From Planctomycetales bacterium 10988 (GTDB lineage: Bacteria; Planctomycetota; Planctomycetia; Pirellulales; Pb10988): a stretch of DNA of 64,000 nucleotides. Under the pieces are notes generated by a model. The model had not been told where the DNA came from. It worked only from the letters and a program-made list of their open reading frames with translations, and did not search any database. The stretch is taken from the NCBI GenBank assembly GCA_009664345.1, contig CP043547.1, forward strand, positions 5,670,709-5,734,708, given 5' to 3'. Below are positions 16,182 through 29,971 of this stretch, piece after piece. The translations under genes were made by a program, and so were the position numbers. Position 1 is the stretch's first letter. Each line of letters begins with the position of its first letter.

Positions 16182-17453
16182 ATGGAGTTTCCGCAACTCT
16201 TTCGTGTGCATCAACATTTCGATGCTCCGTCTATTTCTGATATCGATGGGGAAATCCATGATCAATTGACAAAGCTCGCCCTCGGAGAAAAAATTTCACC
16301 CGGTGAGACGGTCGCGATCACGGCGGGGAGTCGAGGGATTTCGAACATTGCCCAGATTATCAAAGCTGTGGTGATGCATTTTCAACAGTTAGGGGCCAAG
16401 CCGTTTATCGTCCCTTCGATGGGCAGTCACGGCGGCGGAACGGCGGAAGGACAACGGGCGATTATCGAAGGGTATGGCATGACCGAAGAATTTCTCGGCT
16501 GTCCGATTCGTTCTTCGATGGAAACCGTACTCGTTTGCGAGTCACCAGAAGGGGTGCCGATTCACTTTGACCAAAACGCCTATCAAGCGGATCACGTTTT
16601 CGTTTGCGGTCGGGTCAAGCCGCATACTCGCTTTAGTGGCGAAATTGAAAGCGGCCTGCTCAAGATGATGCTCATCGGTCTGGGCAAACGGACCGGGGCG
16701 AGAATCTATCATCGGGCGATTCAAGATTTTAGCTTCGATCAGATCTTACACAGTGTCATCGGCGAGGTGTTGCAAAAGTGTTCGATTGTCGCCGGATTGG
16801 GCATTGTGGAAAATGGTTATGAACAGACCGCGATGCTGGAAGCGATTCATCCTCAGGATTTCATCGAACGTGAAAAGGTCTTACTTAAACAAGCTAAAGA
16901 CTGGTTTCCCAAGGTTCCTTTTGAAAAAGTCGATCTCTTGCTGATTGATCAAATTGGCAAAAACATCAGCGGTTCAGGGATGGATACCAATGTCGTCGGG
17001 CGAAAGGTGTATGATCACTGTGCCGCCGAACACGAATTCCCCAAGGTAAAACGGATCGCGTTGCGGGGATTGACCGAAGCGACGCACGGGAATGCTTGTG
17101 GTTTTGGAATTGCCGAGTTTGCCACGCAAGCCGCCCTCGATTCAGTCGATTGGGAAATTACGAAAGTGAATGCGCTTACCGGCGGACATCCCACCGTAGC
17201 AATGAGCCCGGTGATTTTTCCCACCGATCAAACGATGCTCGAAAATGCTTTGACCAGTATCGGACTCACCGAACCGCCCGATGCCAGAATGGTCTGGATT
17301 CAAGACACACTTCACTTGGCGGAATTTGAATGCTCCACCGCATTTCTCAAGGAAGTACAAGCCAACCCGGCTCTCGAAATCCTTCGCGAACCGCTCCCGC
17401 TTGGCTTTGATGAACATGGCAAAATCCTCGAACGCTATGAACATCATTCTTAG
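16182..17453 (+). CDS. LarA-family (DUF2088) protein
   Basis: A 423-residue protein related to LarA, the nickel-pincer-dependent lactate racemase, probably one of the LarA homologues with another substrate. Visible are MGSHGGGTAEGQ (about 88-99), a motif typical of the N-terminal domain, and GRVKPHTRF with a conserved Lys and His, followed by the ESGLLKMM helix. The cofactor synthesis genes larB, larC and larE are not in the window. The last 27 codons and the following terminator recur in a diverged, truncated copy at 27474-27611. The start is the first ATG of the frame; its ribosome-binding site is weak. Confidence 0.8.
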   Translation: MEFPQLFRVHQHFDAPSISDIDGEIHDQLTKLALGEKISPGETVAITAGSRGISNIAQIIKAVVMHFQQLGAKPFIVPSMGSHGGGTAEGQRAIIEGYGMTEEFLGCPIRSSMETVLVCESPEGVPIHFDQNAYQADHVFVCGRVKPHTRFSGEIESGLLKMMLIGLGKRTGARIYHRAIQDFSFDQILHSVIGEVLQKCSIVAGLGIVENGYEQTAMLEAIHPQDFIEREKVLLKQAKDWFPKVPFEKVDLLLIDQIGKNISGSGMDTNVVGRKVYDHCAAEHEFPKVKRIALRGLTEATHGNACGFGIAEFATQAALDSVDWEITKVNALTGGHPTVAMSPVIFPTDQTMLENALTSIGLTEPPDARMVWIQDTLHLAEFECSTAFLKEVQANPALEILREPLPLGFDEHGKILERYEHHS

Positions 17454-17506
17454 TTGGCAACCAATACGAAACACAAAAAGCCTGCTGATTGCGAGAACCA
17501 GCAGGC
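17371..17506 (+). repeat. Direct repeat, left copy (3' end of LarA-like gene plus hairpin)
   Basis: This 136-base segment covers the last codons of the LarA-like gene, the stop codon and the downstream hairpin GCCTGCTG/CAGCAGGC. It matches 27474-27611 with about ten substitutions and two single-base insertions. Here the hairpin has lost its T tract (ATTCTATTT follows), while the right copy keeps six T. Confidence 0.9.
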
Positions 17507-17722
17507 ATTCTATTTGGTGCGTTGGGACCTGGTGCTGGTAACTGGGGAGCGAACATGAACCTGGAAGTTGCTTCGTCGTCGAATGGGTGGGAAGAAAGCT
17601 AGAAAATTCAAACGTCGAGGTCATCTGGATTGATCCGGCGTAAATGACACGAATGGTCTGGGAGGACAGCGGGAGCATTTTCTCATCCTCCTCGATCCTC
17701 TTCACAATTCTCCGTAGGAACG

Positions 17723-18754
17723 GTGGTAGGTTACTTTGCTGTGAGTCCCGAATCTCAAACCACGAATCCGAAAGCAATTCCTTTCTCTTTTCCAGAGTTT
17801 CGTTCCCATCTTTTGCTGCCTGGTCCACATTTGCAAACGATTGCAGGGAGTTGGGGACAAGGGCCGGTCTTGCCAGAAATCGAAAAGCACTTTTTAGAAC
17901 TTTCCGATGGCGATCAGTTGATCCTCTATGATCTTTGCCCACCTGAGTGGAAGCCTTCGCGGACATCGGCCTTGCTGGTGCATGGTTTGGCGGGGAGTCA
18001 TGGGAGTCCTTATCTAAAAAGAATTTGTGCGCGACTTTATCAATTGGGCATTCGGGCGTGGCGGCTCGATCTTCGCGGAGCGGGACCGGGGGCGGAGTAC
18101 GCCACGCGGCCTTATCATGCGGGAAGAAGTGAAGACCTGTGGGAGGCCGTCCGATGGATTACCCGGCGACAACCCGATTCTCCGTTGGTGGTGGTAGGTT
18201 TTTCTTTGGGCGGGAATCTGCTTTTGAAATTCTTGGCCGAACATTCCGCTAAGGAACTGGTCCCCGTTCGTCGAGCGATGGCGGTTTCGCCCCCGGTGGA
18301 CCTTTCTCACTCCGTGCAAAATCTCAATCGATGGCCGCAACGGATTTACGATCGTTACTTCGTCAGAATCCTGTTGAGCCAGATTCGCCGCAACAACAAA
18401 GTTCCTTTCCCCGAAGGCGATCTGGTTTGGAAAAATCCTCCGCGAACGCTGCAAGAGATCGATGCCCGCTACACGGCACCGCTCGCGGGTTTCTTGGATG
18501 AGTGGGATTATTATTCGCAATCGAGTGCCGCTCAGGGGTTGGCAAAGATTGAGATTCCCACGTGGATGGTTTCGGCGGATGACGACCCGGTCGTGCCTGC
18601 CTCGATCTTTGCCGAGCTTTCCTATTCCGAGCAAGTTCACGTGACGCTTACTCGCGGTGGTGGTCATCTCGGTTTTTTAGCTGCCAACAATTCGGATGAA
18701 TGCTTCCGCTGGATGGATGGCCGGGTGGTTGATTGGATCAAAAATGAGTTTTAG
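17723..18754 (+). CDS. Alpha/beta hydrolase, YheT type
   Basis: A 343-residue hydrolase of the YheT/ABHD1-3 group, likely an esterase acting on lipids. The N-terminal motif with LPGPHLQTI, the oxyanion segment LLVHGLAGSHGSPY, the DLRGAGPG turn, the nucleophile elbow GFSLGGN with S161, the acid in the VSADDDPVVP segment and the catalytic His in GGGHLGF are all present, so the enzyme should be active. The start is GTG with AGGA upstream. It lies alone between the LarA-like gene and the exosortase gene. Confidence 0.9.
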   Translation: MVGYFAVSPESQTTNPKAIPFSFPEFRSHLLLPGPHLQTIAGSWGQGPVLPEIEKHFLELSDGDQLILYDLCPPEWKPSRTSALLVHGLAGSHGSPYLKRICARLYQLGIRAWRLDLRGAGPGAEYATRPYHAGRSEDLWEAVRWITRRQPDSPLVVVGFSLGGNLLLKFLAEHSAKELVPVRRAMAVSPPVDLSHSVQNLNRWPQRIYDRYFVRILLSQIRRNNKVPFPEGDLVWKNPPRTLQEIDARYTAPLAGFLDEWDYYSQSSAAQGLAKIEIPTWMVSADDDPVVPASIFAELSYSEQVHVTLTRGGGHLGFLAANNSDECFRWMDGRVVDWIKNEF

Positions 18755-19263
18755 TGAATGCTCTAACTTCTGGCTTTAACCTATCTTACCAGATTCAGAA
18801 TGTTTTTGATCCTAGCTAAAAAGTCGTCTTTACTTGATCGGCGGAGGATGGTAGGTTCTTCGCAGATTTCTGTGATGGAATCGCTCCAGGCTTGTCCTTT
18901 TCCAACCCTGTGCTCCGCGGATGACGTGAGAGTAGCGGAAAAATGGCCTGGGTGCCGACACTCGCCGACTTCGGCGAACGCCTAAAGTTCGACCATTGCT
19001 TTTCCCAACTTACTGTGGGAAGTAATGTTTCCTTGATGTGGAAGTTTTCGAGAGAAGCTTCTGTTCGATGACGTTGATGGGCCATGAAGCGAGGAAGCTT
19101 TTGACCCTCAACTTGGTAAATGCTAAACGGTTTCGCTTGACTCGTGTTTGCGGGATTCGATCGTTTACCCCCTTTGAAATCGGTTCGCGTTTTTTGCGTG
19201 AGCATTTCAAAGATGACACCTAGGAAGGGTGTTCCTCTAATTTTGCTGCAAGGATGCTCAACT
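18755..19263. other. Intergenic region before the exosortase gene
   Basis: About 500 bases without a credible gene. It contains a small perfect hairpin, TCGCCG-ACTT-CGGCGA at 18962-18977, without a T tract. The exosortase promoter must lie here, but no clear -35/-10 pair was seen. Confidence 0.55.
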
Positions 19264-20154
19264 ATGTCTGCAACTCCGCGCTGGGAATTCGTTGCGCGAA
19301 TTTCCGCCTTCCTCGGTCTATTAGGTCTATTTGCTTGGGCTTATTGGCCGACGTTTCTTGATCTTGTCCATACGTGGGAGACGGAAGAAGATTACGCCCA
19401 CGGGTATTTGGTCGCCCCGCTGACTTGTCTTTTTCTTTGGATGCGACGCGATCGCTTTCCGGGTTGGGGCAATCCTCAGATTCTCGCCGCTGTCAGTTTG
19501 GTGACCGTTGCTCTCATTCTGCGGCTTGGCGGTTCGCTCTTTTATATGGAATCGCTGGAAGGCTGGTCGATTCCGATTTGGATCGCCGGAGCCGTGTTGC
19601 TCCTCGGTGGCGGTTCTTTTTGGAGTTGGTGTCTGCCGGCCATTGGCTTTTTGTTCTTTATGGTTCCTTTGCCGTTTCGGGCAGAACAAATGTTGAGCTT
19701 TCCGCTGCAACGTTTCGCCGCTCGCCTGAGTGCTTGGGCCTTGCAATGCATGGGACAACCCGCTTTGGCTGAAGGCAATACGCTTTGGCTCGGCGATCAA
19801 CAATTGGAAGTGGAACAAGCCTGCTCCGGCCTGCGAATCCTCATGGGGATCTTTGCGATTGCCTATGCTTATCTCATTTTAACCCGGCGAAACTGGTGGG
19901 AACGCGGACTTCTGATCCTGACCATCTTGCCGATCACCTTGATTGCCAATTCCACCCGGATCGTAGTGACCGGGCTTTTATTTCAATCGATCACCGATGA
20001 AGCCACCAAAGATTGGGCACATGACATGGTAGGTTGGGCGGTCCTGCCGCTGGCAGCCGCGATGTTTGCCCTGGTGTTGAGTTATCTCAGCATGTTAATG
20101 CGTGAGGAAGAAGTCGTCTCCGTCGGGGAGTTGGTTCGTAGTCGCAGCGCGTAG
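19264..20154 (+). CDS. Exosortase (membrane transpeptidase-like protease)
   Basis: A 296-residue, eight- or nine-helix membrane protein of the exosortase/archaeosortase family, which cuts C-terminal sorting tags (PEP-CTERM-like) and probably transfers the protein to a surface anchor. The catalytic triad is complete: C187 in EQACSGLR, R232 in NSTRIVVTG and H253 in WAHDMVGW. The frame is open from 19144, but the ATG at 19264 follows AAGGA and starts just before the first helix, so it is preferred. No EpsI domain is fused at the C-terminus. The gene is followed by the Wzz/BY-kinase gene, the classical exopolysaccharide context for exosortases. Confidence 0.92.
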   Translation: MSATPRWEFVARISAFLGLLGLFAWAYWPTFLDLVHTWETEEDYAHGYLVAPLTCLFLWMRRDRFPGWGNPQILAAVSLVTVALILRLGGSLFYMESLEGWSIPIWIAGAVLLLGGGSFWSWCLPAIGFLFFMVPLPFRAEQMLSFPLQRFAARLSAWALQCMGQPALAEGNTLWLGDQQLEVEQACSGLRILMGIFAIAYAYLILTRRNWWERGLLILTILPITLIANSTRIVVTGLLFQSITDEATKDWAHDMVGWAVLPLAAAMFALVLSYLSMLMREEEVVSVGELVRSRSA

Positions 20155-20321
20155 GGAAGCTGTCCTTTCCCATTCGCCCACCCGTCAACCATTGTTTCGT
20201 TTTTAAATCATTCGATTTCCGTTCACACGGAGCATCTTTTGTCGAGATACTTTCCGCCATGGCAACTTGCCGAGCGGCGAACAACGTCTTGACACCTTGG
20301 TCCTCGGAAAAGGTATCCATT

Positions 20322-22484
20322 ATGGCAACCAAAGCGATTTTGCCGGCGATTCGCCAGGCACCAGCGTTACCGGCTGAAACAAATCCCGCACAGCCGATCA
20401 CGGCCACCTTCGTGGCGAATTCCTTGCGACAATGGTGGTGGGCCTTCGTTCCTGCTGCCTTGGGTCTCGCCTTGGCAAGTGCCACGGCCATCATGATGTT
20501 CTTCGAACCTGTCTACGAGGCTTCAGCCTGGATTCAGATTGCGGAACGTGAACCTTATATTGCCTTCGATACCCCGCTCGAAAGCCATCGCTTCGTGGAA
20601 ACGCAGGTCGGCTTGATGCGATCGCCTTTGATCCTTGGCCCGGTCGTGAGCAAGCCGGAAGTCGCTCAAATGCCGGAAATCCTCCAGGAAGAGGCTCCTA
20701 TCGAGTGGCTTTCCGAACGGATTCATGTGAAGTCCGTTGGGGATTCGGAACTCTTTGAAGTTCGCTTTGAAGGCCCGAACGCCGCCCATGCCCAACTCAT
20801 CACCAATGAGGTTGTGAATACTTACCTCAAGATGCGAAACGAAGATGACAATGCCCAAACGCAACGGGTCATTGAACTCCTCGAAGGGCAAAAGGAACAA
20901 CGTTCGCAAAACGTCATGCGATTACGCGAAAATGTTCGCGAACTGAGCAAGCAAACCACCGGGCAAGACCCCTTCGGACCAAATCCGGTTTCCGAAGTGA
21001 TCTCCTTGGAACATCCGCTGGGGAATTTGCAAAAGCGTTTGACCGAAGCGGAAGTGCATCGCGAAGTGATGGAAGCCCGTTTGAAGGTCTATCAAGAAGC
21101 CATTCACGCTCGACCGGTTGAACTTTCGCAAATGGAAGTCGAAGAGTCCGTTGAACGGAATGTCGAAGTTCAAGAGCTAAAGACCAAGCTGGCTACCATG
21201 CGGGTGATGATGCTCGATACCGAACGCCGTGCGGCGGACCCGGAGAAATCCTCGACCTATCGTAAACTCGCTGGGGATTACAAAGAGACGCAAGCTTCTT
21301 TGGAAGAAATTCGCGAAGAGTTGCGAGCACGCGTCGTCAGCGAAATGGAATCTCACGAACGTAGTGTTCGCGATGATCAACTCCTTTCCTTGCAAAGCGA
21401 ACTCGACAGCACCCGCTTGATGGAAGAGTTGCTCAGCCGCCGGTATGAGGAGGAACTCGGCAAAGTGAAAAAGTCGAGTGGGCAATCGTTGGAACTCGTT
21501 TTCGCCTTGGCGGAACTCGAACGGGAAGAGAAAGTCTTCGAATTGATCGCCGCCCGGACCTTGGCCCTCCGCACGGAAATGCGTGCTCCTGCCCGTGTCA
21601 ACTTGCTGAAAGAAGCGGAAATTCCTCCGAAGCCGATCGAAGCCTTGCCCGTTAAGAAACTTGGCATTGCGATGTTGGGAAGCCTGGGCTTGCCGCTGTT
21701 GATCTGTGTTTTCTGGGAACGTACGGTTCGCCGAGTCAGTGAAGCCAAGCAGCTTGGACAAGACCTTAAAGTGGAAAGCGTTTGGGAAATCGCGAGCTTG
21801 CCGGTTCGATCGCGAAATGCTCGTCGAGCAGGTCGGGCAAGGGGGCTCTTCGAAGAGAGTGTGGATAGCCTCCGCACGGGGCTTGTGCTTTCCGAGCCAC
21901 TCCGCGATGCCCGCGTGTTGGCCGTTACGAGTGCCATCAGCCGCGAAGGAAAAACGAGTCTCTCTTCGGAACTGGCCGTCAGTATCGCTCAAGCCACCGG
22001 CGAACCGACCTTGTTGATCGATGGGGATATGCGATCTCCAGACATTCACACGATCTTCGAAATTCCGATGGAACCGGGTTTGTCGAAAGTCCTTGATTAT
22101 CAATGCGATGTTCAAGATGCGATCGTCACCGATTGGGGCGAAGGCGTTCACTTGCTGCCGGCAGGTCGCTTGCACAAAAGCCCGCACAAGCTGCTGGGGA
22201 ATGCTTCCTTCGCGACGATCTTGAAAAATCTCTCGCGTATCTATCGTTATATCATTATCGACTGCCCGCCGATCTTGCCCGCCAGTGAAGCGATGGTGAT
22301 CGCCAAGGCTGCCGATGCTACGTTGGTTTGTGCCAAACGCGATCTCTCTCGCGTCGAACAAGTGGAAGCTGCTTTCGAGCGGTTGCATGTTGCCGGGGCT
22401 CGTCCAGTAGGAGCTGTCCTCAATGGCGTGCCGGCTCGCTCTTATCTGTATTCCTATGGCCGGTATGCTTTGCCAACGGCATGA
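20322..22484 (+). CDS. Wzz / bacterial tyrosine kinase fusion
   Basis: About 720 residues controlling chain length and export of polysaccharide. Order: N-terminal helix and Wzz domain in the periplasm, long coiled coils with Glu/Lys/Arg heptads (about 170-420), a second transmembrane helix followed by EAKQLGQDLK, then a cytoplasmic BY-kinase domain. In the kinase the Walker A (SREGKTSLSSELA), Walker A' (LLIDGDMRSPDIH) and Walker B (YIIIDCPP) motifs are visible. The C-terminus has a Tyr cluster (YLYSYGRY) for autophosphorylation. The ATG at 20322 with AAGG upstream is preferred over 20259. A terminator follows directly. Confidence 0.92.
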   Translation: MATKAILPAIRQAPALPAETNPAQPITATFVANSLRQWWWAFVPAALGLALASATAIMMFFEPVYEASAWIQIAEREPYIAFDTPLESHRFVETQVGLMRSPLILGPVVSKPEVAQMPEILQEEAPIEWLSERIHVKSVGDSELFEVRFEGPNAAHAQLITNEVVNTYLKMRNEDDNAQTQRVIELLEGQKEQRSQNVMRLRENVRELSKQTTGQDPFGPNPVSEVISLEHPLGNLQKRLTEAEVHREVMEARLKVYQEAIHARPVELSQMEVEESVERNVEVQELKTKLATMRVMMLDTERRAADPEKSSTYRKLAGDYKETQASLEEIREELRARVVSEMESHERSVRDDQLLSLQSELDSTRLMEELLSRRYEEELGKVKKSSGQSLELVFALAELEREEKVFELIAARTLALRTEMRAPARVNLLKEAEIPPKPIEALPVKKLGIAMLGSLGLPLLICVFWERTVRRVSEAKQLGQDLKVESVWEIASLPVRSRNARRAGRARGLFEESVDSLRTGLVLSEPLRDARVLAVTSAISREGKTSLSSELAVSIAQATGEPTLLIDGDMRSPDIHTIFEIPMEPGLSKVLDYQCDVQDAIVTDWGEGVHLLPAGRLHKSPHKLLGNASFATILKNLSRIYRYIIIDCPPILPASEAMVIAKAADATLVCAKRDLSRVEQVEAAFERLHVAGARPVGAVLNGVPARSYLYSYGRYALPTA

Positions 22485-22519
22485 CCGACCGTTGTGAAAC
22501 AGTGATCTGAATCGTTCAC

Positions 22520-22562
22520 AAGGGGAGAGGTTGGATTATCAAGAAGACTTCTCCCCTTTTTT
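22520..22562 (+). terminator. Rho-independent terminator
   Basis: AAGGGGAGA at 22520-22528 pairs with TCTCCCCTT at 22550-22558, and further T follow. It lies directly after the Wzz/BY-kinase gene, separating it from the TPR gene. Confidence 0.85.
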
Positions 22563-22768
22563 CCTCTCCAAATCATGACAATGATCGTTATCGATATCGG
22601 AAAGCGTCTCGATCCCTGCCGTAGCGAAATTAGGTTGATCTTCTTCGTTCTTCACCTTATTCCGTTCGTGGCTGCTCAGACCTGATCTTACACTCCTAGA
22701 TTTTCCTCGTGTCCCAACCAACCTTTTGAACTTTCCTTGAGAACATCCGACTTCGGAAGGAACCGACC

Positions 22769-25700
22769 ATGCTGCAAACAGGACGTTCTGTCGCCCGCCC
22801 TCGGCCGAGTAGCTACGTTGCCTCGGTCACACAACCTCAAAAGAAATCACGCCGTCGCATCCTCAATCTTCCGCTGATGATCGGAAGTTTTGTCGGCATC
22901 GCCCTCTTAGGAATCGGTGGTTATGCTTGGCATAACTATCAACTCGAACAAACGGCTACGATCTTTTTGGAACGAGCCGAACAACTTGATGCCGATGGCA
23001 AGCCGGAAAAAGCCGCCGCTTACCTGCATCGCTATTTGCAACTTCATCCCGAGGACCGAGATGCCCGCGTGCAACTTGCCCAAGTCTATCGCAAGGCGGT
23101 CACGGACGAAGCCGGCAAGGCCCGGGCCGCGGAGCTTTACTATCGAGCCATGGGGCTGGTTCCCAATAATATGGAGCTGCGGAAGGAGTTGGGCGTTCTC
23201 TTGATCGAGCTGGGGCGATATCAAGCGGCTTACGAACAGGCCGAGTCGATCCTTGAAGAGAAACCCAATGATCTTCCTGGCCTGAAACTTCGTGCCCAAG
23301 CCCTTTATGGAAAATACCACAACGGCGGCAGCGTCACCAAAGCCACCGTCTCGCAATCCTTCGAAGACTATCTTTCTCAAGACCCTGGCAATGTCGAACT
23401 CGCCGCGGTCCTTGCTGCTTTCTATCGAGAAAATTGGAAAGGCGAACCTTCCTTCGGAGCTGAGAAGAAAGCGGATCGCATCATTGATCGCCTGCTCGAA
23501 GTCAACCCGGATTCGGTCGATGCCTTGCTGACACGCTTTCAATATCGCCGTCTGTTTCAGTTGGATGGGGGCGAATCTGATCTTCAAGGGGCCTTGGAGA
23601 TGGACCCGAACCATTATCAAGGGCATGTCGCTGCCGCGGATTATGCAACGCAACGCGAAGAATTCGAGACCGCTCAGCATCACTATCAACGTGCAATCGA
23701 GTTGAAACCTGAAGAATCCGCCGCCTATTTGGGCTTAGGAAAACTCTGGCGAACACAAAATGAACCCGCCCAGGCCATCGATTTTTTACGCACCGGCATC
23801 GAAAAATCCTCGGTCAATCCTTTAGAGTTACATTTTGAATTGGCCGAAGCCCTCTTTGAAAGTGAAGCTTATGCCGAAGTGGAAGAGGAAATTACCAGCC
23901 TTCGCAAAGTCTTGAAAGAACTGCGACCCAAAATGGTCGTGACCGAATGGGAGAACCATCAAACCAAGGTGGGACAACTTGAAGCTCGTTACTTGATGTC
24001 TCAGGGAGAATTCCACCAAGCGGTTGATCTTCTTTCGTCGTTGGTCCTCTCTCGGGACCTGAAAACCGAAATGCTTTTGGGCAACTGCTATCTGAAGCTA
24101 CAACAATGGGACTTGGCTGCGGATACGTTTGAACAAGCCGTTCAAATCGATCCCGCTTACGCTCCTGCTCGGATTTCCGCTGCAAAATCGCGGGTGGCCG
24201 CGAATCGTCCCGACTTGGCAATTCAACATTATCAGCATGTGATCGCCTTGCAAAATTCTCCAGAGTCTCATTTTCAATATGCCCGTGCGTTGTTTGAAGA
24301 ACAATGTCGCAAACCAAAATGGGATCGCAACTGGGATCAGTTTGAGCAAGCCATCTCGACGGCCCTTTCCGTGGCTGATCAAAACCACCTTGAAGATGCC
24401 TGGCGAGTTCACTTGCTCAACATGACCTATCAGTTGATGAAAACGACTTCGGAAAATCCCGCCACTGCCTTGATTCCAGAACTAAAACAGTTGGAAGCAG
24501 AGTACGGAGATTCCGAGGCTCTTTGGAAAGAACTGGCCGTCATCTATGAAACCTTTGGACTGACAAGTTCGACGGATCGAGCGCTGAAGCACTATCAAGA
24601 ACTCACGCCACACCGTGCCTCGGGGACGATCCTCGCCGCACAAATCACCGCCGGTCGAGACGGATACGATGGGGCAGAGCGTCTGTTGGAACAAGCCTTG
24701 CCCTTCCTTACCCCAGAAGAACAAGTCAAAATCCGACGGGAATGGGCCGTCTTGGCAACGAAATTCTCCAAGACGGAAGAAGCCGTTAAGCAATGGGAAT
24801 CCATTCATCGCATTGACCCCAAGAACCTGGAAGCCTTGAGCCAACTCGCTCAATCCGCCTTGCAAGCCGGGCACATCGAAGCCACGGAACATTGGGAAGA
24901 GAAGCTGATGAAAGTCGAAGGCGAACGCGGTACCCACTGGCGTTTCCACCGTGCTCAGCGACTTCTGCAAACCAATGAAGAGGTCGATTCCCCTGGTTTC
25001 CGGGAAGCGATGAAGTTGTTGGCCTTTTTGCAACAAGAACGCCCCTCCTGGTCGGCCGCCAGTTTGCTCAAGGCCCAAGTGGCTCAACGCCAAGGCTTCA
25101 TCGATCGTGCCATTGATGCTTACCAGATGGCTCTGCACCAAGGGGACCGCCAACTTCCCTTGTTCGAACAGTTGATCTCCTTGCTCTACGAACAAGAACG
25201 CTTCGCGGAAGCGGAACGCCACTTGGCAATGCTGGAAGGTGAAATTCCTCATTCGCCGACGCTTTCTTCTTTGGCAATTTCGGTTGCTTCTCAACGAGGT
25301 AATTTGGATAGTGGCTTGGAAGTTGCGAAGAAACGAGTGAAGAACCAACCCAAGGACCTAATGGCTCGCATCTGGCTTGGTCAGTTACTCCTGAAAAGTG
25401 GCGATTCCCAAGGTGCGGAAGAAGCCTTTCTAGAAGCCCATCAAATGGCTCCCGAAGATGCCCGCAGTTGGGTTGCCCTTTACACTTACTATTTGCAAAG
25501 TGGGGAGCAGGTTGCCGCCCGCGATTTGCTGACAAAACTGACTGAAGAAACGCATCTTCAACCGGCTCGAAAGTCCTTTATTTTAGGGCAAGGATACGAG
25601 AAACTTGGCGATCGCGACAAGGCCCGCCATTATTATCGATCCGCCCGCCAGCAAGCTCCCGAAGATGCCAACGTGCATTTGGAATTTGCCCGCTTCATGC

Positions 25701-27100
25701 TTTCGGAAGATACCGAACAAGCCGAAACGGCCCTCCGCGAAGTTTTGCGATTAGAGCCGACTCGCTCCGAAGCCCGCCGCTTGCTCGCCCGATTGCTGGC
25801 GGAACGAGGGGGAAGTCAAGCTTGGTCGGAAGCCCAACGGCTTCTTTCCATCGAAGAAGGAAATACCAATCAATCGCCCCTCGACTTGCGACTTCAAGCG
25901 GTCTTGCTTGCCCAACGGGGTGGCCAAGAGAATGTCAAACAGTCGCGACAGATTCTAGAGCAACTCTTGGAACAACCGCAAACCGCGATTCCCGCCGATC
26001 GTCTGCTGCTCGCCAAATTGCTTGAGCAGGAAGGTCGCGAACACGCCGCTCGACAACAGTATGTGGTTTTGATTGGAAGATCCGATCCTCAACCGGAACA
26101 TGTGATCGCTTATCTTGATTTCCTTTTCCGCAATGGACATACCAGTGAGATTGATCATTGGTTGACGAAGTTGGAAAGAGTGGAACCCGATGCGTTAATC
26201 ACCTTGGCTTATCGCTGTAAACTCCTTCATACTCGTGGAGACCTGACAGAGATCGAACGTCGTCTCAATTCGTATTTATTGAAATTACAAGATTCAACTT
26301 CTGATAAAACGCAACTTGCCCAGACGATGGTTCAAATTGGCAAGCTTTATCGTGAGTTGGAAATGTATGACGCCAGCGATCGTACTTTCGCAGAGTTGAT
26401 GGAACTGGTTCCTTATGGATATGGAGAGCTGGCATTAAACTTTGCCAATCAAGATCGTTTAAATGAAGCCATTGATCTTTGTTTACAAGCGGCCCAACAA
26501 GATCAAACCGTTCGCCCGGCTCTCTATTTAGCCACGGTGTTAACCATTCGAAAAGGAACCGTCGAACAATATCAACAAGCGGAACCGTTGTTTCAACAAA
26601 CCATGGAACAATTTCCGCGTCATGTTGATCTCTTGTTACGTATTGCCAACATGCGTGTGCAAGAAGGTAAATCCGAGCAAGCGATGGCCCTGTATCGTGA
26701 ATTGTTAAGTATCCAACCGGATCATGTGATCGCAATGAATAACTTGGCAACACTCCTCGGGGAAAAAATCGAGACGCGTGAAGAAGCCTTGGCTTGGGTC
26801 GATCGAGCGTTGGAATCCGCCGGGAATCATGCAGAGTTGTTGGATACTAAAGGAATGTTGCTTGTTCATTTAAATCGAGCGGAAGAAGCCATTCCTGTCT
26901 TGATGGAAGCGACTCTATTAAAGCCTGTTGATCCTCGTTACCATTTCCATTTAGCCGTTGCCTACCATAAACAGGTTCGGTTAGATGAAGCGGCACAAGC
27001 CTTCCAACAAGCCCGAGAGAAAAAGCTTGATCGCTCCGTCATGACCTCGGAAGAGTTGGACTTGTTAAATCAATTAACAAGCACCCTCTCCGTTCCTTAA
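22769..27100 (+). CDS. Giant TPR-repeat protein of the exosortase/EPS module
   Basis: A 1443-residue protein with a basic N-terminus, one transmembrane helix at about 35-54, and then tetratricopeptide repeats over nearly its whole length. I count well over fifteen candidate units, for example around HYQRAIELKPEESAAYLGLG and ALYRELLSIQPDHVIAMNNL. Large TPR proteins accompany exosortases in many bacteria (PrsT-like) and may organise export of the polymer or tagged proteins. The final 0.9 kb, from about 26.15 kb, is noticeably more AT-rich in codon choice than the rest, although the frame and repeats continue intact. Position after the BY-kinase gene supports membership of the module. Confidence 0.88.
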   Translation: MLQTGRSVARPRPSSYVASVTQPQKKSRRRILNLPLMIGSFVGIALLGIGGYAWHNYQLEQTATIFLERAEQLDADGKPEKAAAYLHRYLQLHPEDRDARVQLAQVYRKAVTDEAGKARAAELYYRAMGLVPNNMELRKELGVLLIELGRYQAAYEQAESILEEKPNDLPGLKLRAQALYGKYHNGGSVTKATVSQSFEDYLSQDPGNVELAAVLAAFYRENWKGEPSFGAEKKADRIIDRLLEVNPDSVDALLTRFQYRRLFQLDGGESDLQGALEMDPNHYQGHVAAADYATQREEFETAQHHYQRAIELKPEESAAYLGLGKLWRTQNEPAQAIDFLRTGIEKSSVNPLELHFELAEALFESEAYAEVEEEITSLRKVLKELRPKMVVTEWENHQTKVGQLEARYLMSQGEFHQAVDLLSSLVLSRDLKTEMLLGNCYLKLQQWDLAADTFEQAVQIDPAYAPARISAAKSRVAANRPDLAIQHYQHVIALQNSPESHFQYARALFEEQCRKPKWDRNWDQFEQAISTALSVADQNHLEDAWRVHLLNMTYQLMKTTSENPATALIPELKQLEAEYGDSEALWKELAVIYETFGLTSSTDRALKHYQELTPHRASGTILAAQITAGRDGYDGAERLLEQALPFLTPEEQVKIRREWAVLATKFSKTEEAVKQWESIHRIDPKNLEALSQLAQSALQAGHIEATEHWEEKLMKVEGERGTHWRFHRAQRLLQTNEEVDSPGFREAMKLLAFLQQERPSWSAASLLKAQVAQRQGFIDRAIDAYQMALHQGDRQLPLFEQLISLLYEQERFAEAERHLAMLEGEIPHSPTLSSLAISVASQRGNLDSGLEVAKKRVKNQPKDLMARIWLGQLLLKSGDSQGAEEAFLEAHQMAPEDARSWVALYTYYLQSGEQVAARDLLTKLTEETHLQPARKSFILGQGYEKLGDRDKARHYYRSARQQAPEDANVHLEFARFMLSEDTEQAETALREVLRLEPTRSEARRLLARLLAERGGSQAWSEAQRLLSIEEGNTNQSPLDLRLQAVLLAQRGGQENVKQSRQILEQLLEQPQTAIPADRLLLAKLLEQEGREHAARQQYVVLIGRSDPQPEHVIAYLDFLFRNGHTSEIDHWLTKLERVEPDALITLAYRCKLLHTRGDLTEIERRLNSYLLKLQDSTSDKTQLAQTMVQIGKLYRELEMYDASDRTFAELMELVPYGYGELALNFANQDRLNEAIDLCLQAAQQDQTVRPALYLATVLTIRKGTVEQYQQAEPLFQQTMEQFPRHVDLLLRIANMRVQEGKSEQAMALYRELLSIQPDHVIAMNNLATLLGEKIETREEALAWVDRALESAGNHAELLDTKGMLLVHLNRAEEAIPVLMEATLLKPVDPRYHFHLAVAYHKQVRLDEAAQAFQQAREKKLDRSVMTSEELDLLNQLTSTLSVP

Positions 27101-27216
27101 TCGCAATTTAAATAATCAATTAAAGTTTTAGAGCCAACGGTCAAAACTTATATAAATAGATAGCTACCTATAAAAAGGCTGCTTTCAAGTAACTTTTGAC
27201 CACACACTCTTAATAG

Positions 27217-27251
27217 CCCTCTTGGAAAGTTCTTTTCTGAGAGGGTTTTCT
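27217..27251 (+). terminator. Probable terminator after the TPR gene
   Basis: CCCTCT at 27217-27222 pairs with AGAGGG at 27240-27245, followed by a T-rich tract (TTTTCTTTT). The stem is short, with a loop of 17 bases. Confidence 0.6.
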
Positions 27252-27473
27252 TTTGTGCATCGGTCATGACACGCGGCGTCAGGACCTAGCGTCGGTAGTT
27301 AAAGAGACAAGCCGAGACCAGAACAATGACATGCTTGCCACGGCGAAGAGCCGCACTGTTGAACCGTTTGCAGCAGAGCATTCACTGACCTAAGGCAGAC
27401 ATCGACCGAAAGCGGAGCCGCCGGAGAGGGTATCGAATAGGTAGGGCGGAAGGACATGGTAGGAGCAAACTGC

Positions 27474-27611
27474 CTCTCGAAATCATTCGCGAACCGCTGC
27501 CGCTTGGGTTCGATGAGCGTGGCAAAATCCTCGAACGCTATGAACATCATTCTTAGTTGGCAACCAATAAGAAACACCAAAAAAGCCTGCTGATTGTGAA
27601 AACCAGCAGGC
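27474..27611 (+). pseudogene. Truncated LarA-family gene remnant (right copy of direct repeat)
   Basis: Only the last 26 codons, the stop codon and the terminator of a LarA-family gene are left. The segment reads LEIIREPLPLGFDERGKI then LERYEHHS and stop, against LEILREPLPLGFDEHGKI in the intact gene at 16182-17453. The coding differences are conservative or silent, so this copy was under selection before it was truncated. Upstream (about 27260-27473) is a stretch that matches no part of the intact gene and has no ATG-started frame joining it. It may be a remnant of something inserted or deleted there. Rough identity of the 136-138 bases is 92-93 percent. Confidence 0.85.
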
Positions 27612-27617
27612 TTTTTT
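27584..27617 (+). terminator. Rho-independent terminator in the right repeat
   Basis: GCCTGCTG pairs with CAGCAGGC across an 11-base loop and is followed by six T. The left copy has the same stem but no T tract. It also faces the PVC small basic protein gene on the other strand. Confidence 0.85.
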
Positions 27618-27647
27618 GTTTTGATAACGAACTCGATGGCGAGAACG

Positions 27648-27875
27648 TTATTTTTTCTTTTTCTTCTTATCGCCTTCTTCCTCAGGTGCTTTGACTTTCT
27701 TTTTCTTCTTCACCTGAAGTTTGTAAACGCGAACTTTTTGCAAGCCCAAGGGGGATTGTTCATCCGCATCAAAGGCGTCCTGTTCTTTCAGCTTTTCAAT
27801 CCGTTCCGCGCGGGTCAGCACACTTCGCATGCGAGTCAGGGCGGCCTTCGGCTTGATGCTGCGGTCTAAAGTCAT
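27648..27875 (-). CDS. PVC small basic protein
   Basis: A 75-residue, strongly basic protein starting MTLDRSIKPKAALTRMRSVL and ending in Lys-rich runs. I recognise the small basic protein family shared by Planctomycetes, Verrucomicrobia and Chlamydiae (TIGR04137 type), regarded as a signature of the superphylum. The conserved first part (LDRS, RSVLTRAERI) is intact, and the poly-Lys extension at the end is longer than the core family needs. A GGAGGG ribosome-binding site stands before ATG. Its exact role is not settled; a ribosome or RNA association has been suggested because of its size, charge and abundance. Confidence 0.9.
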   Translation of the reverse strand: MTLDRSIKPKAALTRMRSVLTRAERIEKLKEQDAFDADEQSPLGLQKVRVYKLQVKKKKKVKAPEEEGDKKKKKK

Positions 27876-29439: not shown

Positions 29440-29464
29440 GAGCAAGGAAAAGGGACTGCCGATG
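29440..29464 (+). promoter_or_regulatory. csrA translation start region with GGA motifs
   Basis: The stretch just before the csrA ATG contains CAAGGA and AGGGA. Such GGA motifs overlapping the ribosome-binding site are how CsrA represses its own or other translation in known cases, so autoregulation is likely here. Confidence 0.5.
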
Positions 29465-29686
29465 TTGGTCTTATCTAGGAAGAAAAACGAAAGTATTGTC
29501 ATCAACAACGATATTACCATTGTTGTTGTCGAAATTCGCGGCGATAAAGTTCGTCTCGGGGTGGAGGCTCCTAAAGAGGTGCCTGTCCATCGGAGGGAAG
29601 TTTATGATGCCATTCAGCGTGGTACGGTGGTGAATGATTCGAAAGCATCGCATGGTGCAGATCGGGCTACAACTGGGGAAGCTTAA
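29462..29686 (+). CDS. csrA: Carbon storage regulator, RNA-binding
   Basis: A 74-residue CsrA/RsmA protein, a homodimer that binds GGA motifs in mRNA leaders to control translation and stability. The first strand [15 protein letters not shown] is near canonical, as is the [23 protein letters not shown] segment with the RNA-contacting Arg. The C-terminal tail is short and polar. It has a long leader of paired sequences and is followed by tRNA-Glu on the same strand. Targets in this organism are unknown. Confidence 0.95.
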
Positions 29687-29809
29687 CTTTTCCAAAAAAG
29701 TGCCGAACTAATCTCTTAGAATCACTGTCTCTCAAGTTGATGGGTGTGCGTTAGAAAGTCAAGTAGGATTCGCTTTTTCTTGATTTATTTGAAAAGTTGT
29801 CTGATCCGG

Positions 29810-29838
29810 TTGACGAATTTTTGACGAACTCTTATAGT
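29810..29838 (+). promoter_or_regulatory. Sigma-70 type promoter of tRNA-Glu
   Basis: TTGACG at 29810-29815 and TATAGT at 29833-29838, separated by exactly 17 bases. The tRNA begins 35 bases after the -10 box. Confidence 0.8.
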
Positions 29839-29873
29839 AGGAAAACCTTCTGCGGAAGGGACATTTCCTCGCT

Positions 29874-29948
29874 GGCCCCATCGTCTAGTCAGGTCTAGGA
29901 CACCGGCCTTTCACGCCGATAACACGGGTTCGAATCCCGTTGGGGTCA
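29874..29948 (+). tRNA. tRNA-Glu (anticodon TTC)
   Basis: A 75-base cloverleaf. The acceptor arm GGCCCCA pairs with TGGGGTC (one G-T pair), discriminator A, anticodon loop CTTTCAC giving anticodon TTC, T arm ACGGG-TTCGAAT-CCCGT. No encoded CCA. Confidence 0.96.
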
Positions 29949-29971
29949 TTTACTTCTTATGAAGTCAGAAT

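What the first reader, a model, noticed from the sequence alone, without database searches (positions are those of the whole stretch)
17371..27611. Exosortase/BY-kinase block lies between two 136-bp direct repeats of a gene's 3' end
The last codons, stop and terminator of the LarA-like gene at 16182-17453 recur at 27474-27611 with about ten substitutions. Between them lie the YheT hydrolase, exosortase, Wzz/BY-kinase and giant TPR genes. Elements that integrate at a gene's 3' end and restore it leave exactly this pattern, but no integrase is seen. A partial duplication with later loss is the other option. The repeats would also allow loss of the whole block by recombination.
Basis: partly seen in the sequence, partly recalled or inferred. 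Interest (0 to 1): 0.65.

Follow-up and report, generated by a model that had tools for sequence, protein, structure and literature searches.

The report
Duplicated gene end flanking exosortase operon
The last 30 codons and the transcription stop signal of one gene occur twice, 10 kb apart, around a conserved cell-surface operon; this is most likely the scar of an old recombination event that joined two gene orders, and not a mobile element, because no integrase or other mobility gene is present.

Summary
Window 17363-17509 (codons 395-423, stop and terminator hairpin of a LarA-like nickel-pincer isomerase) recurs at 27466-27614 at 90% identity, with 13 substitutions and one 2-base gap. These are the only two copies in the 6.65-Mb Pirellulales-order genome. 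The 9,956 bp between them carry a YheT-type hydrolase and an exosortase, BY-kinase and TPR operon. That operon is conserved in about 20 loci from the order, but in none of the searched relatives next to LarA, YheT or the small-basic-protein gene beyond the second copy. No tyrosine integrase lies within 580 kb, and no phage gene was found. No same-family genome is held, so an empty site cannot be shown. A second case exists in the same genome: the 3' end and terminator of clpX (317 bp, 96%) recur 37.6 kb away, again with no integrase found. All 7 of its coding differences are synonymous, which argues strongly against decay in place. I favour additive recombination at a gene's 3' end with diverged DNA (single-crossover or homology-facilitated illegitimate recombination). 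Rivals are a decayed duplicate or an integrative element that lost its integrase. For LarA alone the choice is not settled. Ordinary genome plasticity, of modest interest.

The parts
16182..17453 (+). LarA-like gene, nickel pincer cofactor-dependent isomerase group 22; intact
   Evidence: NCBIfam NF052515 500 bits against cut-off 400, model ends at residue 394; relatives 54-65% identical
17363..17509 (+). Repeat copy A: LarA codons 395-423, stop, terminator hairpin
   Evidence: 90% identical to copy B
17480..17506 (.). Hairpin of copy A; T tract only on the minus strand
17417..17466 (+). 50-base stretch identical in both copies, spanning the stop codon
   Evidence: read from the alignment
17723..18754 (+). 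YheT-type alpha/beta hydrolase; in relatives located elsewhere
19144..20154 (+). Exosortase (EpsH type), the only one found in this genome
   Evidence: PF09721 205.6 bits, TIGR02602 147.6 against cut-off 105.6; one match in own genome
20259..22484 (+). Wzz/BY-type tyrosine autokinase
   Evidence: TIGR01007 123 bits against cut-off 108; next to exosortase in relatives
22769..27100 (+). Giant TPR protein (PrsT-like, below that model's cut-off)
   Evidence: TIGR02917 287 bits, cut-off 312; third gene of the conserved operon
27129..27212 (+). Copy of an 84-bp dispersed element with inverted ends
   Evidence: 43 copies in 1.59 Mb of this genome, none in 2.1 Mb of relatives
27215..27247 (+). Likely terminator of the TPR gene
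   Evidence: 15-pair hairpin followed by T-rich tail
27248..27465 (.). Spacer of unknown origin, single copy in the genome, nothing recognised in it
27466..27614 (+). Repeat copy B: orphan 3' end and terminator of a LarA-like gene
   Evidence: encodes KLPLEIIREPLPLGFDERGKILERYEHHS in frame
27578..27618 (-). Near-perfect two-way hairpin terminator, placed to serve the small-basic-protein gene
   Evidence: 18 pairs, -27 kcal/mol on the minus strand
27648..27875 (-). Small basic protein gene, convergent with the LarA fragment
   Evidence: TIGR04137 59 bits against cut-off 50

Best explanation
Copy B is the displaced 3' end of a larA gene that once ran directly into the small-basic-protein gene, sharing one two-way terminator. 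DNA carrying larA followed by YheT and the exosortase operon recombined at the larA 3' end: homologous exchange at larA, then either a single crossover of circular DNA or an illegitimate join at 27465/27466. The intact gene received one 3' end, and the other was left stranded 10 kb downstream. No integrase is needed. Shown: the repeat, its boundaries, no tyrosine integrase nearby, the conserved operon, and a second case at clpX whose fragment diverged while still coding. Inferred: the direction, the donor, and that LarA and clpX share a cause.
For: The repeat runs from inside the gene to the end of the terminator, as expected if two gene orders share larA and differ after it. Copy B keeps the better two-way hairpin and abuts a convergent gene. 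Copy A's hairpin has its T tract only on the minus strand, as if it too once served a convergent gene. The clpX pair in the same genome has the same layout: a 317-bp repeat from inside the gene through the terminator, fragment next to a convergent ORF, 37.6 kb apart. All 7 coding differences there are synonymous; simulated in-place decay gave 0 of 4000. No tyrosine recombinase is near either pair. Gene order is fluid across the order. Homology-facilitated illegitimate recombination that leaves orphan 3' regions has been proposed for Vibrio T6SS and Rhs loci (PMC5361080).
Against: No relative with larA next to the small-basic-protein gene, or with larA followed by YheT, was found. In LarA itself only 4 of 6 differences in the solid part are at third codon positions (P about 0.10), so in-place decay of copy B is not excluded. 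No microhomology was proven at 27465/27466. Natural transformation or conjugation in this organism was not tested. Composition of the block is native.
Confidence: 0.45

Rival explanations
1. Segmental duplication inside the genome followed by loss: a second larA (with its surroundings) arose by duplication and all but its 3' end was deleted; the terminator was kept because the convergent gene uses it.
For: Only two copies exist, 10 kb apart in direct orientation. The same 1.59 Mb holds other direct repeats of 0.1-2 kb, some of which may be segmental duplications. The kept hairpin is the strongest terminator found by the scan of the region.
Against: Needs two deletions, one of which would have to end at the terminator, in both the LarA and the clpX case. 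The clpX fragment shows only synonymous coding differences, so both copies would have had to stay functional for a long time.
Confidence: 0.3
2. The block is an integrative element that used the larA 3' end as its attachment site, as e14 uses icd, and has since lost its integrase.
For: Intact gene plus displaced 3' fragment with an identity block across the stop codon and into the terminator is the att pattern described for icd and fis islands; the 147-149 bp here compare with 163 bp at icd (PMC6379469, PMC10111431). The longest identical stretch, 50 bp, spans the stop codon.
Against: No tyrosine recombinase within about 580 kb. Cargo is a conserved chromosomal operon and a hydrolase, with no phage or conjugation genes recognised. 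No viral contig or plasmid carries this 3' end.
Confidence: 0.17
3. Only the short 3' segment was copied, not the block inserted: a terminator-bearing fragment was pasted in front of the small-basic-protein gene, for example by template switching or reverse transcription of a transcript end.
For: Both fragments end at the terminator and are truncated at the 5' side.
Against: Such a dead copy should pick up non-synonymous changes; the clpX copy has none. No mechanism was identified, and both fragments lie near their source and in the same orientation.
Confidence: 0.05

Closest known systems
e14 prophage in icd of E. coli K-12 (icd / icd' pseudogene)
   Same: A protein-coding gene with an intact, replaced 3' end, a block, and a displaced 3' fragment of about 150 bp (163 bp in icd; PMC6379469).
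   Different: e14 is a prophage with its own integrase; this block has no recombinase and carries conserved chromosomal genes.
Genomic islands (PICIs) at the 3' end of fis
   Same: The identity block covers the stop codon and can run into the rho-independent terminator (PMC10111431).
   Different: Those islands have an integrase clade and precisely mapped boundaries; here there is no integrase and no empty site could be shown.
Homology-facilitated illegitimate recombination, as proposed for orphan immunity genes and orphan Rhs 3' regions (PMC5361080)
   Same: Homology at one side only, an added block, and an orphaned 3' end downstream of it.
   Different: Here the anchor gene is a metabolic enzyme and the added block an exosortase operon; donor and join are not demonstrated.
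Exosortase / BY-kinase / PrsT-like TPR operon of PEP-CTERM-type systems
   Same: Same three genes in the same order in nearly all of 20 loci read from relatives.
   Different: In none of them next to larA, YheT or the small-basic-protein gene; the TPR protein is below the PrsT model cut-off.

Membership tests
Integrative element at a gene 3' end (e14/icd type) | Direct repeat of the target gene's 3' end at both block ends, gene restored | tested here: met
Integrative element at a gene 3' end (e14/icd type) | Site-specific recombinase in or beside the block | tested here: not met
   whole-genome PF00589 scan, nearest match about 580 kb away; no such domain in the block genes. Serine recombinases were not scanned genome-wide
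Integrative element at a gene 3' end (e14/icd type) | Phage, conjugation or other mobility genes in the block | tested here: not met
Integrative element at a gene 3' end (e14/icd type) | Empty site in related genomes | tested here: inconclusive
   no same-family genome held; nearest LarA 65% identical; downstream order differs in every relative read
Additive recombination (single crossover or homology-facilitated illegitimate recombination) | Shared homology at one side, intact recombined gene, orphaned remainder downstream | tested here: met
Additive recombination (single crossover or homology-facilitated illegitimate recombination) | Two copies differ as diverged coding sequences would | tested here: inconclusive
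   LarA 4 of 6 at third positions (P 0.10); the clpX pair does meet it with 7 of 7
Additive recombination (single crossover or homology-facilitated illegitimate recombination) | A donor gene order larA-YheT-exosortase without copy B | tested here: inconclusive
   not found in about 100 relatives
Exosortase-associated operon | EpsH-family exosortase next to BY-kinase and PrsT-like TPR gene | tested here: met
   but the TPR protein scores 287 bits against the PrsT cut-off of 312
Nickel pincer cofactor-dependent isomerase group 22 (LarA-like) | NF052515 above cut-off | tested here: met
   500 bits against 400

The most novel reading that the evidence does not exclude
This lineage repeatedly gains or reshuffles chromosomal operons by an integrase-free process anchored at gene 3' ends and terminators (LarA and clpX are two cases in a quarter of the genome), possibly helped by its 84-bp dispersed palindromic element, a copy of which lies within 260 bp of one repeat edge in both cases.
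Probability: 0.1. Interest if true: 0.55.

Novelty: new member of a known kind. Interest (0 to 1): 0.3.

Why it matters
It would show how a core cell-surface operon (the genome's only exosortase with its kinase and TPR partner) can come to sit at a new place without a mobile element, and leave a readable scar. Gene order around these genes is almost fully shuffled between families of this order of planctomycetes, and paired gene-3'-end scars such as those at LarA and clpX could help explain how, if a genome-wide and within-genus survey confirms them.

Tried and rejected
Comparing LarA, YheT, exosortase and small-basic-protein neighbourhoods in 57 whole genomes and 80 further contigs: none has the window's order, so no pre-state could be read. 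The first genome-contig scan with the single protein found nothing. clpX and its outer neighbour (a xylose-isomerase-like gene) are also apart in relatives, so the second case gives no pre-state either. I suspected the 27248-27465 spacer to be a tRNA or IS remnant, but found no second copy in the genome and no convincing match elsewhere. Shared terminator sequence as a genome-wide repeat: rejected, only these two hairpins. Viral contigs and plasmids with the same 3' end: none.

Full report
Check of the observation. A 147/149-base direct repeat is present at 17363-17509 and 27466-27614, with 13 substitutions and one 2-base gap. A whole-genome search finds exactly these two copies (E 8.5e-78 and 1.3e-51); the hairpin of the terminator, searched as a pattern, also occurs only here. 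The unit comprises LarA codons 395-423, the stop codon and the hairpin. The family model of this LarA-like enzyme (NF052515, nickel pincer isomerase group 22, 500 bits against a cut-off of 400) ends at residue 394, so the repeat covers the variable tail. Both tails look like real LarA tails when set beside relatives. The longest identical stretch is 50 bases around the stop codon (17417-17466).

Anatomy. Between the copies lie a YheT-type hydrolase (17723-18754), an exosortase (19144-20154), a Wzz/BY-kinase (20259-22484) and a 1443-aa TPR protein (22769-27100). After the TPR gene come a copy of an 84-bp dispersed element (27129-27212), a likely TPR-gene terminator (27215-27247), 218 bases of unassigned spacer and copy B. 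Copy B's hairpin is near perfect in both directions (18 pairs, -27 kcal/mol on the minus strand) and lies about 30 bases from the end of the convergent small-basic-protein gene (TIGR04137), which it presumably terminates. Copy A's hairpin is weaker and has its T tract only on the minus strand, as if it too once served a convergent gene.

Relatives. The genome is a single 6.65-Mb contig of a family with no other genome held; the nearest LarA is 64-65% identical, in genomes labelled Pirellulales or Planctomycetaceae. The gene upstream of LarA (a DUF748-like gene in divergent orientation) is kept in many relatives, but downstream genes differ from family to family. The exosortase, kinase and TPR genes form a conserved three-gene operon in nearly all of the 20 loci read, always without LarA, YheT or the small-basic-protein gene beside it. 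YheT and the small basic protein also lie elsewhere. So the window's order is particular to its lineage, and relatives tell neither the empty site nor the donor order. Only one exosortase was found in this genome, and G+C of the block is like the rest.

Is it a mobile element? A whole-genome scan for tyrosine recombinases finds 18 matches, the nearest about 580 kb away. No phage or mobility function was found among the block genes searched, and no viral contig or plasmid carries this 3' end. The pattern as such is that of e14 in icd, where a 163-bp icd fragment is displaced (PMC6379469), and of islands at fis, whose identity block can extend into the terminator (PMC10111431). The resemblance is in layout; the defining enzyme is missing. 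Serine recombinases were not scanned genome-wide.

A second case. I read 1.59 Mb of the same genome (5060001-6649480) and listed repeats of at least 60 bases. Apart from IS-like families and the 84-bp element, one pair has the same design: 317 bases at 96% identity at 5945394-5945710 and 5982966-5983282, the 3' end and terminator of clpX, 37.6 kb apart in direct orientation, the fragment 7 bases from a convergent ORF. The genes read between the copies are ordinary, with no integrase. All seven coding differences between the intact clpX end and the fragment are synonymous; in a simulation of duplication followed by neutral decay of the copy, 0 of 4000 runs gave this. The fragment therefore most likely diverged while it was still part of a working gene, in a donor or a long-kept second copy. 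For LarA the same test is weak: 4 of 6 differences in the solid part are at third positions, P about 0.10.

Interpretation. The simplest single event that explains an intact gene, an added block, an orphaned 3' end that stops at the terminator, and pre-diverged copies is recombination between two DNA molecules sharing the gene but differing downstream: a single crossover of circular DNA, or homologous exchange at one side with an illegitimate join at the other. The latter has been proposed for orphan immunity genes and orphan Rhs 3' regions (PMC5361080) and was measured at low frequency in E. coli (PMC3240628). Duplication and loss inside the genome needs more steps but is not excluded for LarA. 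An element that lost its integrase is possible but has no positive support beyond the layout. The direct repeats could in principle allow loss of the block, but at 90% identity with a 50-base identical core this would be rare (inference).

Verdict. It is an ordinary kind of recombination scar, with modest extra interest from the second, clpX case.

Noticed in passing
window 27129-27212; 42 further copies in G000 5060001-6649480 (e.g. 6065293-6065375, 6358069-6358151): An 84-bp dispersed intergenic element with inverted ends (TAAGAGCCAGTGGTCAAAA ... TTTTGACCACAAACTCTTA), 43 copies in 1.59 Mb and none in 2.1 Mb of relatives. It is enriched near ORF starts (4.4% within 300 bp against 1.8% of 3' ends) and, counted by hand on 36 full copies, 26 lie upstream of a gene in the same sense: MITE-like or a regulatory element.
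   Followed up: partly
G000:C1:5945394-5945710 and 5982966-5983282 (L283, L285): Second gene-3'-end repeat: clpX 3' end and terminator duplicated 37.6 kb apart, all 7 coding differences synonymous, no integrase found between them.
   Followed up: yes
window 27129-27212 and G000:C1:5982888-5982971: In both the LarA and the clpX case a copy of the 84-bp element lies within 260 bp of one repeat edge; a random position has a 1.8% chance of being within 300 bp of one. Cause unknown.
   Followed up: partly
G000:C1:5526000-5623500: A stretch about 50 kb before the window dense in mosaic direct repeats of 0.3-2 kb at 81-98% identity.
   Followed up: no
L091-L110: The exosortase, BY-kinase and giant TPR genes form a conserved operon across many families of this order, always in a different neighbourhood from the window's.
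   Followed up: yes
window 29462-29950: A csrA-like gene followed by tRNA-Glu, 2 kb beyond the small-basic-protein gene and a NuoI-like ferredoxin gene.
   Followed up: no
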